Below are positions 28,801 through 32,026 of a stretch of DNA of 64,000 bases, one piece after another; position 1 is the stretch's first letter; each line of letters opens with the position of its first letter. The stretch comes from Candidatus Melainabacteria bacterium (GTDB lineage Bacteria; Cyanobacteriota; Vampirovibrionia; Obscuribacterales; Obscuribacteraceae): assembly GCA_003242885.1 (NCBI GenBank), contig QKMZ01000017.1:50026-114025 (forward strand), given 5' to 3'. The notes under the pieces are model-generated. The model saw nothing but the letters and a program-made list of their open reading frames with translations. It ran no database searches and was not told the origin of the DNA. A program made the translations under genes and the position numbers.

Positions 28801-29088
28801 CCATTAGACACCACGCACATAGAGACTTTGATAGAAGCCTACACCGAAGCAGCCGTTCAGGCTCAACGTTTCGCCGATAAGTACAGCAAAATCTACATTG
28901 AAGAGTCCAGGTTTTATAATGAACGAGCTGAAGAATTTCTTGCTCACGCTACAGCGGCTAAGGCGCTCGAGCTAGACCAATCCCTCCAGGACTTTGCTCT
29001 CTACGCCGCAGAACTTAAGAAACATGATCAAGACGACTTAAGTGCAGCGAAGAAATTTTTTCAGGTACGAAAAGCTCTCTGGGAGTAG
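28801..29088 (+). CDS. Small helical hypothetical protein
   Basis: ATG at 28801; ORF ends directly before repeat site 1. Confidence 0.5.
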   Translation, partial: PLDTTHIETLIEAYTEAAVQAQRFADKYSKIYIEESRFYNERAEEFLAHATAAKALELDQSLQDFALYAAELKKHDQDDLSAAKKFFQVRKALWE

Positions 29089-29093
29089 AACAT

Positions 29094-29102
29094 TACCAAG
29101 AA
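29094..29102 (+). repeat. Module-border repeat, site 1 (TACCAAGAA arm)
   Basis: aACATTACCAAGAATttgct. Confidence 0.7.
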
Positions 29103-29103
29103 T

Positions 29104-29292
29104 TTGCTCGTTAGCGTTTCTTGCTCTTCGATTCTTGATCCGGAACATGCAAGCTTGAATAGGATTATGACTGAGAAAGATGATGGCAAAAATGAAATTC
29201 GCAAAGAGTCAATCACGACCCTGAGTGTTTGTGCCCTTGCCGTTCTGACGATAGTAACCACTGGAAATCTTGAATTTAGCCAAAAGCACTGA
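29104..29292 (+). CDS. Small hypothetical protein with one predicted hydrophobic segment (module 1)
   Basis: ORF lying between repeat sites 1 and 2. Confidence 0.35.
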   Translation: MLVSVSCSSILDPEHASLNRIMTEKDDGKNEIRKESITTLSVCALAVLTIVTTGNLEFSQKH

Positions 29293-29376
29293 GGTGTGTT
29301 GCTGTCTCTCGGTGAGAAGCGGCGAAAACGGCGCACGTTGAAGGAGCTACCAGCTCCAAAAGAGTAGCCAAAACAT

Positions 29377-29400
29377 TACCAAGAATGACTGAAATTGGTA
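29377..29400 (+). repeat. Module-border repeat, site 2 (TACCAAGAA-tgactg-AAATTGGTA)
   Basis: Perfect TACCAA/TTGGTA inverted arms in 24 bp. Confidence 0.7.
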
Positions 29401-30119
29401 CCGCTATGACAGATGACGAAATTATCGAAAGCGTTCGGCATTCTTTGATCGTTCTTGGAGTCGGGGATATTAAGAGGGCCTATGAAGGACGTTCGTTAGT
29501 TGGAGCTTTTACACTGTGTTGCTGTTTGCTCGATTCAGCTTCTGGATATTGTTGCAATGGCAACAACTTTGAGTCATTTTGCGTCCAGTTTTTGCACAAG
29601 GTAAATCGAAAGTATAGACAAATTCAGCAGTTGCTATACACTGCGTTGCGAAACGGACTTGTGCATTCACATTCCCCTGGGATCCGACTGGAGAATGGAA
29701 AGATTTGGCGATTCGCTCTTAGTACTGAAAATCCGGAAAAGCATCTGACAAAATCAGAATTCGGTGACCAGGTAGAAGTATTTTTAAACCTCGATTGTTT
29801 CATTGCTGATGTTGAAGAAGCAATAAACAGATACTTCATTTCGGTGTCCGATTTGAAAGATCCTCATAGGAAACGGAAACACCTTTTGGAACACGCAAAG
29901 AACGTCGGATGGCTCAAGATTTCTAGAGAATTCGAACAACAAGATTGCGCAGGAATTCTCTTGCGTGGGCTTGTTACCGGTACAGGCTTTCCTCAAGATA
30001 AACAATTTGTCCCACAGCCAACAGACGCGACTGTATTTCAGAGGAAGAAAATGGAGCCGGAAAAGAAGCGCAAAAAAAAGTCTCAAATACCCGGCTTCTT
30101 ACTCCCGAAAGATGAGTGA
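29385..30119 (+). CDS. Hypothetical protein (module 2)
   Basis: 244-aa ORF between repeat sites 2 and 3; LLYTALRNGLVHSHSPG motif. Confidence 0.55.
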   Translation: MTEIGTAMTDDEIIESVRHSLIVLGVGDIKRAYEGRSLVGAFTLCCCLLDSASGYCCNGNNFESFCVQFLHKVNRKYRQIQQLLYTALRNGLVHSHSPGIRLENGKIWRFALSTENPEKHLTKSEFGDQVEVFLNLDCFIADVEEAINRYFISVSDLKDPHRKRKHLLEHAKNVGWLKISREFEQQDCAGILLRGLVTGTGFPQDKQFVPQPTDATVFQRKKMEPEKKRKKKSQIPGFLLPKDE

Positions 30120-30142
30120 AAGCTGCTTCATTGCACAAACAT

Positions 30143-30166
30143 TACCAAGAATGCGTCATTGGCTAT
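30143..30166 (+). repeat. Module-border repeat, site 3
   Basis: TACCAAGAA-tgcgtc-ATTGGCTAT. Confidence 0.65.
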
Positions 30167-31291
30167 ATGATGTTTTCAGAGAAGTTTTGGAGAGACAATT
30201 TGGGTTATTTATCAGTTAGCAACGTTAATGGCGAGCAATTAGTCGTTCACGGAGCTTTTAAGGGAGAGCTGGAACGCATCATAAAAAAGTGCTGGAATGC
30301 ATCATCTCAGGCTTCCAAGGAAGAAGTTCTAAAAACACTTGCCAAAGATTCCTATCTCGTTTTCGACGATAAGCTGGCTTCAATTGCCGCCAAGCGGAAT
30401 GAATTACTCAAAAAGTCGAAAGTGCTCTTTGACAAATTGCTCGAAGATTTCAAAAATAATAGCGTTACTCTGCATGGTCACAATGGTGGTACAGACAAGA
30501 TAGACGCCTCAAAATTAGTTCGGCAAGTATTATTGCGACGGATAGCTCCAAACAAATTACTGCTGCAGGTCGAGCGTCATCCATACAAAGGCGCATCATT
30601 TGTCGTTAACCAATTTTGGCTCTACAATGCCACCGACAAAAGTTGTGAGCTAATCGGGAACGAAACAATTACGAAGCCAGTTTTCGGAGGAACTTTGGTT
30701 CAGGTACAAGGAAACTGGCAGCCTGTAACAACAAAAAGGGATGCGTTTCATGCTCTCATTAAGACTTTGCTCGGAGAGTGCGGCTTGGAAACATTTCTAC
30801 GAAAGACTGCATTTCAGCCGGATCTCCTATTGGACCCTTCGCAAGTCATAAGACAGGAATGTGAAGGAAGAATAGGTCAGCCAATCGAAGAACCTAGACC
30901 AACAACTGTCAGAAGTTCAAATAGCAGTAATGCCGGCAATGTGCTTGGTTTGAACATGACGAAAGGATTTGTTGTCCACGGCTTTCCTGCTGACTTTTTT
31001 CTCTACAAGCTGAAAGAAGTGCTGGAGACAACTTGCGGTAGCTCGACGGTTGCATTGAATAAAGATGGTGCTACCGTCCGTGTTTCTGGCGGAACTGTCA
31101 AAAAGGAAGCAACTTTTTCTCTCGACAAATTCGAACTTGAGATTAAGAGCGGCAACCTGTCTGAAAAAGCAGAACTTCGGGTCGTCCCAGGACGACCCTG
31201 TTTTGAAACTGAGTGGGAATTGTCTTTCAAAGTTAATGGAAGTGATTACATATTGAGCGATCTGGTCGCATACATAAACGAAAAGAGCTAG
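30167..31291 (+). CDS. Hypothetical protein (module 3)
   Basis: ORF between repeat sites 3 and 4; start uncertain (open from GTG at 30116). Confidence 0.55.
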   Translation: MMFSEKFWRDNLGYLSVSNVNGEQLVVHGAFKGELERIIKKCWNASSQASKEEVLKTLAKDSYLVFDDKLASIAAKRNELLKKSKVLFDKLLEDFKNNSVTLHGHNGGTDKIDASKLVRQVLLRRIAPNKLLLQVERHPYKGASFVVNQFWLYNATDKSCELIGNETITKPVFGGTLVQVQGNWQPVTTKRDAFHALIKTLLGECGLETFLRKTAFQPDLLLDPSQVIRQECEGRIGQPIEEPRPTTVRSSNSSNAGNVLGLNMTKGFVVHGFPADFFLYKLKEVLETTCGSSTVALNKDGATVRVSGGTVKKEATFSLDKFELEIKSGNLSEKAELRVVPGRPCFETEWELSFKVNGSDYILSDLVAYINEKS

Positions 31292-31303
31292 CAATCCAAA
31301 CAC

Positions 31304-31327
31304 TACCAAGAATGTCCTTTTATGGTA
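31304..31327 (+). repeat. Candidate recombinase core site, site 4, adjacent to recombinase gene
   Basis: TACCAAGAA-tgtcct-TTTATGGTA (9-6-9 imperfect inverted repeat); extra TTTATGGTA at 31407-31415. Confidence 0.6.
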
Positions 31328-32026
31328 AAGTGTGAACAAAAAACCAAGTTGAAATCGTACTTTTTACGTCGCTTTTTCGATTGTTCACTTTTTGAGCTAG
31401 TTATCGTTTATGGTAAAGTCCACCCCAAAGAAAAAAAACGACATGGTCCTCCACCTCGGCGGCCAAACACCGAAAAACGTACTCGTGAATATTTGACGCC
31501 AGCCGAAGTCAAAAAAATGATTGACGCGGCAAAATCTGTTGGACGCCACGGCTGCCGCGATGCGCTGTTGATCCTAATTGCCTATCGACATGCACTGAGA
31601 GTTGGTGAGCTAGTCGACCTTAAATGGAAACAGTTCGACTTGGATAAGGGCAGATTTCACGTCAACCGACTGAAAAATGGCGATCCTTCTGTTCATTTCC
31701 TTGAGGGAGACGAAATTAGGGCTCTTAGAAAGCTCCGGAGAGAATATGAGGGGTTTGCCTTTGTTTTCATCTCAGAGAGGCAGGGACCGATGTCTCACAA
31801 CGCAATTCATAAGATTGTTGTCCGTGCCGGCGACCTGGCTCGAATTAAGATTTCGGTTCATGCTCATATGCTCCGCCACGGAAAAGGCTTCCAATTAGCT
31901 TCAGAAGGGGTGGATACTCGAGCGATCCAAGCGTATTTCGGACACAAAAACATCCAACATACTGTGCGTTATACACAGCCAGATGCCAGCAGGTTCAAGG
32001 GATTTGGTAAGGATTTGAAATTTTGA
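31322..32026 (+). CDS. Short FimB/XerD-like tyrosine recombinase
   Basis: YRHALRVGELVDLKWKQFDLDKGRFHVNRLKNGDPSVH, HAHMLRHGKGFQLA, AIQAYFGHKNIQHTVRYTQ; true start uncertain. Confidence 0.85.
   Translation: MVKCEQKTKLKSYFLRRFFDCSLFELVIVYGKVHPKEKKRHGPPPRRPNTEKRTREYLTPAEVKKMIDAAKSVGRHGCRDALLILIAYRHALRVGELVDLKWKQFDLDKGRFHVNRLKNGDPSVHFLEGDEIRALRKLRREYEGFAFVFISERQGPMSHNAIHKIVVRAGDLARIKISVHAHMLRHGKGFQLASEGVDTRAIQAYFGHKNIQHTVRYTQPDASRFKGFGKDLKF

What the first reader, a model, noticed from the sequence alone, without database searches (positions are those of the whole stretch)
29088..32026. Integron-like array of single-gene modules bordered by a TACCAAGAA repeat and ending at a short tyrosine recombinase
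Four directly oriented copies of (A)ACATTACCAAGAAT (fourth: ACACTACCAAGAAT) sit at 29094, 29377, 30143 and 31304, each in the short gap between consecutive same-strand ORFs. They delimit modules of 283, 766 and 1161 bp, each with one ORF of unknown function. The last copy directly abuts the recombinase gene and forms a 24-bp imperfect inverted repeat TACCAAGAA-tgtcct-TTTATGGTA, the 9-6-9 layout expected of a tyrosine-recombinase core site. Site 2 has the same 24-bp spacing (TACCAA...TTGGTA), site 3 a weaker partner arm, and site 1 only the left arm. Classical integrons use IntI and attC (GTTRRRY) folded sites. Here the recombinase is a short FimB/XerD-like protein lacking an obvious long N-terminal domain, and the sites are short duplex-type repeats. 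This could be an undescribed cassette-acquisition or accretion system. The site layout is seen in the sequence; recombination activity is inference.
Basis: partly seen in the sequence, partly recalled or inferred. Interest (0 to 1): 0.87.

Follow-up and report, generated by a model that had tools for sequence, protein, structure and literature searches.

The report
Gene cassettes at a transposon-type resolution site
On a plasmid of an uncultured relative of cyanobacteria, single genes are lined up behind copies of the DNA site used by a small recombinase of the kind that separates copies of Tn3 transposons, which suggests a separately evolved, integron-like way of collecting genes.

Summary
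ACATTACCAAGAAT occurs exactly three times in a 6.7-Mb genome (29090, 29373, 30139). A one-mismatch copy (31300) is the left arm of a 13-6-13 inverted site overlapping a short tyrosine recombinase gene.

The recombinase is not an integron integrase. Its nearest annotated relatives (50-57% identity) include recombinases next to Tn3-family transposases in cyanobacteria and Skermanella. All share one layout: inverted core, then a direct half-site 77-79 bp on (86-89 bp in the window branch, about one helical turn more). This matches the IR1-IR2 plus DR resolution site (IRS) of Tn3 TnpI systems.

In Obscuribacterales, extra core left arms, same strand and upstream of the IRS, divide the DNA into mostly single-gene modules at seven distinct loci, the window included. 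Their arms resemble their own IRS more than others (P about 0.001). Degenerate right arms sit at the exact spacing. One HNH-nuclease cassette occurs in two genera, with homology starting at the site and unrelated flanks. Two arrays lack a recombinase but share a genome with a matching one.

Best reading: a TnpI/IRS module used as a gene-cassette platform. Site anatomy, linkage and shared-cassette boundary are shown; recombinase-driven capture is inferred. No gain or loss at one locus was seen.

The parts
31300..31331 (+). Core recombination site next to the recombinase, 13-6-13 inverted (ACACTACCAAGAA-TGTCCT-TTTATGGTAAAGT); counterpart of IR1-IR2 of a TnpI IRS
   Evidence: the same core precedes the homologues in Obscuribacterales and Tn3-associated relatives
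31407..31419 (+). Direct-repeat accessory half-site (TTTATGGTAAAGT), 88 bp after the core's right arm
   Evidence: spacing 77-79 bp in most loci, 86-89 bp in this branch and two others (about one helical turn more)
31322..32026 (+). Short tyrosine recombinase (TnpI-like, FimB/E-sized); catalytic R, K, HxxR, H and Y motifs visible in the translation. The start used by close homologues (ATG at 31410, in the accessory half-site) is out of frame here because of an 8-A tract
29090..29121 (+). Cassette-type site 1: left arm ACATTACCAAGAA, centre TTTGCT, no clear right arm
29373..29404 (+). Cassette-type site 2: left arm, centre TGACTG, partial right arm (AAATTGGTACCGC)
30139..30170 (+). Cassette-type site 3: left arm, centre TGCGTC, weak right arm
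29104..29292 (+). Small ORF in module 1 (up to 62 aa, doubtful)
   Evidence: no Pfam match
29385..30119 (+). Module 2 gene, 244 aa, unknown function; ATG at 29385 lies inside site 2
   Evidence: one 45% homologue in G021, not flanked by sites
30116..31291 (+). Module 3 gene, unknown function; likely real start near 30199 (TTG) from alignment with homologues
28741..29088 (+). ORF ending 1 nt before site 1; possibly a further module whose left site is lost, or pre-existing flank
   Evidence: inference
48996..49105 (+). Second IRS in the window: core 48996-49027 and direct repeat 49093-49105, no extra sites upstream
49118..49702 (+). Second TnpI-like recombinase, 76% identical to the first

Best explanation
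The recombinase gene and the sites at 31300-31331 and 31407-31419 form a Tn3-family TnpI-type resolution module: a short tyrosine recombinase, an IR1-IR2 core, and one helically phased direct repeat. Upstream, single genes (here three modules) are separated by further copies of the core's left arm with degenerate right arms. The likely mechanism is that the recombinase exchanges strands at the junction of the left arm and the 6-bp centre. It joins a circular cassette (right arm-gene-left arm) to the platform core, so each insertion leaves one more left arm and the platform keeps its right arm, accessory repeat and recombinase gene. This would be an integron-like cassette array built on a resolution system. 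Shown: recombinase family, site anatomy, linkage, arm co-variation, recurrence, and the same cassette in two genera. Inferred: recombinase-catalysed insertion and excision, the point of exchange, and current activity.
For: (1) Conserved IRS: 13-6-13 core plus direct repeat at 77-79 bp, or 86-89 bp, in 28 of 30 sites examined, including Tn3-associated ones in Skermanella, Calothrix, Gloeothece and Geminocystis (contexts). (2) Published TnpI irs: upstream of and next to the resolvase gene, with IR1, IR2, DR1 and DR2, recombination at IR1-IR2 (PMC7157771). (3) With a matrix trained only on other loci's IRS left arms, extra sites scoring at least 17 bits were 7 upstream same strand, 0 upstream opposite, 1 and 0 downstream. 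(4) All five exact matches to AACATTNCCNANAATGAC in 50 genomes lie upstream of a core site in the same direction; three of these are independent of the window plasmid. (5) Cassette left arms match their own IRS at 11.8 of 13 versus 10.4 for random IRSs, P = 0.001; right-arm score at the exact spacing is -0.7 versus -10.5 with sd 1.8 for shuffles. (6) HNH cassette in G032 and G043: 66% protein identity, DNA homology starts at the site, flanks unrelated. (7) In G032:C8 two genes (HNH_5 and Mrr_cat) end 14 and 5 nt before the next site. (8) G024 has tnpA, site, one gene, IRS and recombinase in line. (9) Arrays lacking a recombinase (G032:C8, G049:C35) share a genome with recombinase-bearing IRSs with the same or nearly the same centre.
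Against: No locus was seen with and without a given module; the three genomes with this plasmid segment agree wherever they overlap. Sites are asymmetric and their 6-bp centres differ (TTTGCT, TGACTG, TGCGTC, TGTCCT), which does not fit simple two-strand exchange. Only one close Obscuribacterales homologue has a Tn3 transposase nearby, and no transposon ends were found. Three of the loci behind point 3, and a further array (G043), were found by searching for the site itself, which biases the count. The window recombinase has lost the frame of the start used by its relatives, so it may be altered or inactive.
Confidence: 0.62

Rival explanations
1. Footprints of repeated resolution-module turnover: several IRS-bearing elements inserted or recombined with one another, then lost recombinase and right arms, leaving left-arm scars between genes. 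No cassette mobility as such.
For: IRS modules are mobile or recombinogenic: two copies 92.8% identical over 705 bp with unrelated flanks in one genome. Exchange between Tn3 elements at sites resembling res site I is proposed in PMC7157771. Right arms are degenerate.
Against: No recombinase or transposase remnants were seen between sites in the window array; modules are one gene each with the stop codon close to the next site; the HNH gene recurs with the site at its start in two genera.
Confidence: 0.22
2. The repeats are recombinase-binding operators or translation-start signals for the downstream genes, not recombination sites.
For: Several cassette sites contain the start codon of the next gene (AAAATGAC); [quoted passage not shown]
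Against: The motif is absent elsewhere in the genome; right-arm signal at the exact 6-bp spacing and arm matching to the local IRS are expected of recombination sites; homology of the shared cassette starts at the site.
Confidence: 0.1
3. Chance repeat or simple duplication in a decaying plasmid region.
For: Module genes are orphan-like, and module 1 has no convincing gene.
Against: Uniqueness in the genome and recurrence of the layout in other genomes.
Confidence: 0.04

Closest known systems
TnpI/IRS resolution systems of Tn3-family transposons (Tn4430, Tn5401)
   Same: Tyrosine recombinase with an adjacent inverted core site and direct-repeat accessory motif; nearest annotated homologues sit beside Tn3 transposases
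   Different: Most Obscuribacterales copies have no transposase; one accessory repeat seen instead of two; extra core-like sites bounding single genes upstream
Integrons (IntI, attI, attC cassettes)
   Same: Array of single genes between repeated sites ending at a recombinase-proximal site; short gaps between stop codon and site; some arrays without a recombinase
   Different: Recombinase far below the integron-integrase cutoff; no attC-like RYYYAAC...GTTRRRY site; genes point towards the recombinase, not away from it; 32-bp duplex-type site
pdif (Xer) modules of Acinetobacter
   Same: Modules of one or few genes bounded by short tyrosine-recombinase sites with a 6-bp centre, on plasmids (PMC12907356)
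   Different: pdif uses 11-6-11 sites and host XerC/XerD; here 13-6-13 with a dedicated, co-varying recombinase and degenerate right arms
FimB/FimE-type DNA invertases
   Same: Small recombinase; best NCBIfam match (156 bits against a cutoff of 222)
   Different: Sites directly oriented, so deletion or insertion rather than inversion

Membership tests
Tn3-family TnpI/IRS resolution module | Tyrosine recombinase related to Tn3-associated ones | tested here: met
   50-57% identity to recombinases beside Tn3 transposases (three Skermanella plasmids, Calothrix, Gloeothece)
Tn3-family TnpI/IRS resolution module | Inverted core plus direct-repeat accessory motif next to the recombinase gene | tested here: met
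   compared with the published description. Only one direct repeat found, two described
Tn3-family TnpI/IRS resolution module | Tn3 transposase and terminal inverted repeats in the same element | tested here: not met
   No PF01526 match on the window contig; G024 has tnpA but no ends were found. So a TnpI/IRS-type module, not a demonstrated transposon
Tn3-family TnpI/IRS resolution module | Recombinase recombines its core site | not testable with these tools
   Needs an in vitro or plasmid assay
Integron | IntI-type integrase | tested here: not met
   TIGR02249: 38 bits against a cutoff of 265
Integron | attC sites (RYYYAAC...GTTRRRY) | tested here: not met
   None in 28501-32100 on either strand
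pdif module | 28-bp dif-type 11-6-11 site used by XerCD | tested here: not met
   Sites are 13-6-13, and arms match the local IRS
FimB/FimE invertase | NCBIfam model cutoff and invertible segment between inverted sites | tested here: not met
   156 bits against 222; sites in direct orientation
Gene-cassette system (functional sense) | The same module found in different contexts with boundaries at the sites | tested here: met
   HNH cassette in G032 and G043. One case, not from the window array; the right boundary is less exact than the left
Gene-cassette system (functional sense) | Excision or integration observed | not testable with these tools
   No reads available; no empty-site comparison found

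The most novel reading that the evidence does not exclude
Tn3-type TnpI resolvases have been converted, in Obscuribacterales and perhaps more widely, into a dedicated gene-cassette integrase acting on duplex sites, independent of integrons and of Xer/pdif modules, with recombinase-less arrays served in trans and a cargo that includes nuclease genes.
Probability: 0.42. Interest if true: 0.86.

Novelty: new variant of a known kind. Interest (0 to 1): 0.72.

Why it matters
Toxin-antitoxin genes in Tn3-family transposons abut the resolution site, and PMC7157771 states that how they were acquired at the molecular level is unclear. Cassettes bounded by core-site left arms next to a TnpI-type IRS offer a concrete, testable route: the resolvase itself captures genes. 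It would add a separately evolved cassette platform beside integrons and pdif modules, in a little-studied bacterial order.

Tried and rejected
DNA search of the region against PLSDB found nothing. Genome-wide promoter or RBS motif: rejected, no other exact copies. FimB-type inversion: rejected, direct orientation. Integron: rejected by model score and lack of attC. G005:C105 rearranged copy: a join between two window segments at a contig end, probably an assembly or inversion junction, not used as evidence. G011:C192 upstream site: lies inside an ORF, counted as chance and removed. Viral contigs: no recombinase relatives, pattern hits look like chance. A second genome pattern was mis-specified and uninformative; the corrected one gave few new arrays. 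Structure models of the 374-aa and 244-aa cassette proteins were too poor to search. A possible half-site-like motif in the C-terminal codons of the recombinase was considered but not counted, because protein constraint explains it. That a 55% homologue of module 3 and an int homologue both report a longest contig of 8375 bp (P0124, P0108) hints at linkage; the contig could not be read.

Full report
Observation. The window is part of a 114-kb contig (G000:C17) of a 6.7-Mb Obscuribacterales genome. The 14-mer ACATTACCAAGAAT occurs at 29090, 29373 and 30139 and, with one mismatch, at 31300, always on + and always in the gap between same-strand ORFs. Nowhere else in the genome is there an exact copy. 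The last copy overlaps the start of a tyrosine recombinase ORF, 31322-32026 (Phage_integrase, E = 2.6e-37), whose catalytic motifs (ALRVGEL, RLKNG, HMLRH, GHKN, RYT) are visible in the translation.

What the recombinase and its site are. Homologues are frequent in Obscuribacterales, several per genome. Aligning their upstream DNA shows one constant design: a 13-6-13 inverted core, and further on a single right half-site in direct orientation at or within the start of the gene. The distance from the core's right arm to that repeat is 77-79 bp in most of the 30 sites examined and 86-89 bp in four, including the window, a difference of about one DNA helical turn. In protein searches of plasmids the closest annotated relatives, at 50-57% identity, include recombinases next to Tn3-family transposases in three Skermanella plasmids, Calothrix and Gloeothece; Geminocystis carries one with a transposase reading frame nearby. 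Those I could examine carry the same core and a repeat at 77-79 bp. The published description of the TnpI irs (core IR1-IR2 with DR1 and DR2, upstream of tnpI; PMC7157771) fits, except that I find one direct repeat. I therefore call this a TnpI/IRS-type module. It is not shown to be part of a transposon here: there is no tnpA on the contig and only one close Obscuribacterales homologue, G024, has a tnpA nearby.

The extra sites. A weight matrix built only from the IRS left arms of other loci finds seven further sites of at least 17 bits upstream on the same strand (91.7 kb), none upstream on the other strand, and one and zero downstream (67.2 kb). Two loci (G042:C321, G041:C67) were found through the recombinase alone; G032:C8, G049:C35 and G024:C86 were found through a site pattern and so carry selection bias, although their position upstream of an IRS does not. 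G043:C188 is a sixth array outside the window. All five exact pattern matches in 50 genomes lie upstream of a core site in the same direction; two of the five are this same plasmid segment in G000 and G002. Cassette sites resemble the IRS of their own locus (11.8 of 13 arm positions against 10.4; P = 0.001, and 0.003 without the window) and keep a degenerate right arm at exactly the core spacing (-0.7 against -10.5 with sd 1.8 in shuffles; neighbouring offsets far lower). They are thus weakened core sites with a strong left and a weak right arm.

The modules. Each holds in general one same-strand gene whose stop codon lies close to the next site: 8, 19 and 80 nt in the window; 14 and 5 nt in G032:C8; 3 nt in G024. 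Cargo includes an HNH_5 protein, an Mrr_cat restriction-endonuclease-like protein and a Bflower-domain protein; genes just upstream of the outermost site include a YhcG-type nuclease and a T5orf172 protein. The window's module genes have almost no known relatives. The HNH cassette is the best evidence for modularity. In G032 and in G043, different genera, the proteins are 66% identical, DNA homology begins at the site (within a base) and ends shortly before the next site, and nothing outside matches. More distant HNH homologues elsewhere are not bounded by sites.

Arrays without recombinase. G032:C8 and G049:C35 keep core and direct repeat but have no recombinase of this family next to them. 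Each genome also holds recombinase-bearing IRSs with the same or nearly the same centre (TGTCTC with TGTCTG; CAACCT with CAACCT), so action in trans is possible.

Mechanism. The common part of the window sites is the 13-bp left arm plus, in three of four, the TG next to it; centres and right arms differ. If the recombinase exchanges strands at the left-arm/centre junction, each inserted circle would bring its own centre and right arm and leave one more left arm. That reproduces the array, including the dissimilar centres. This step is inference, and one-sided identity would require asymmetric exchange or repair. The alternative, scars of repeated IRS-element turnover, cannot be excluded but does not explain the single-gene packing or the shared HNH cassette.

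State of the window copy. Close homologues start at an ATG inside the direct-repeat half-site (MVK...). Here that ATG (31410) is out of frame because of an 8-A tract, so the protein may start at 31322 or be impaired. The copies in G002 and G005 are identical over the recombinase.

Limits. No read data, no experimentally known site, few arrays (seven distinct), and no direct gain or loss. Overall: observation confirmed, interpretation partly supported, with the family identity corrected to a TnpI/IRS-type module.

Noticed in passing
window 48996-49702: A second TnpI-like recombinase (76% identical) with its own IRS and no extra sites upstream.
   Followed up: partly
window 20546-21265; also L064 9913-10494 (-), L127 1-437, L060 1-437, L059 about 14031-14463, L131 5146-5603, L128 15165-15301: Another short tyrosine recombinase family that appears to recur on the plasmids carrying these IRS loci; possibly a plasmid dimer resolvase.
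   Followed up: no
window 33166-33172 versus L056 4402-7472: The related genome G002 carries a roughly 3.07-kb insertion here with an apparent 7-bp target duplication.
   Followed up: no
G005:C406 15188-15712 and 19142-19228: A close homologue of the recombinase seems split near residue 207 by about 3.4 kb of other DNA.
   Followed up: no
window 25235-26581: AbiJ_NTD3-domain gene (165 bits), a likely phage-defence gene close to the array.
   Followed up: no
L069 (G049:C57) and L070 (G049:C29): Core, direct repeat and recombinase gene form a 705-bp unit 92.8% identical between two contigs of one genome with unrelated flanks, ending at the stop codon; how the unit moves is unexplained.
   Followed up: partly
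L057-L075 recombinase 3' ends: The last codons (FGKD, TTTGGTAARGA) resemble the half-site TTTNGGTAAAGT; possibly chance from protein conservation.
   Followed up: no
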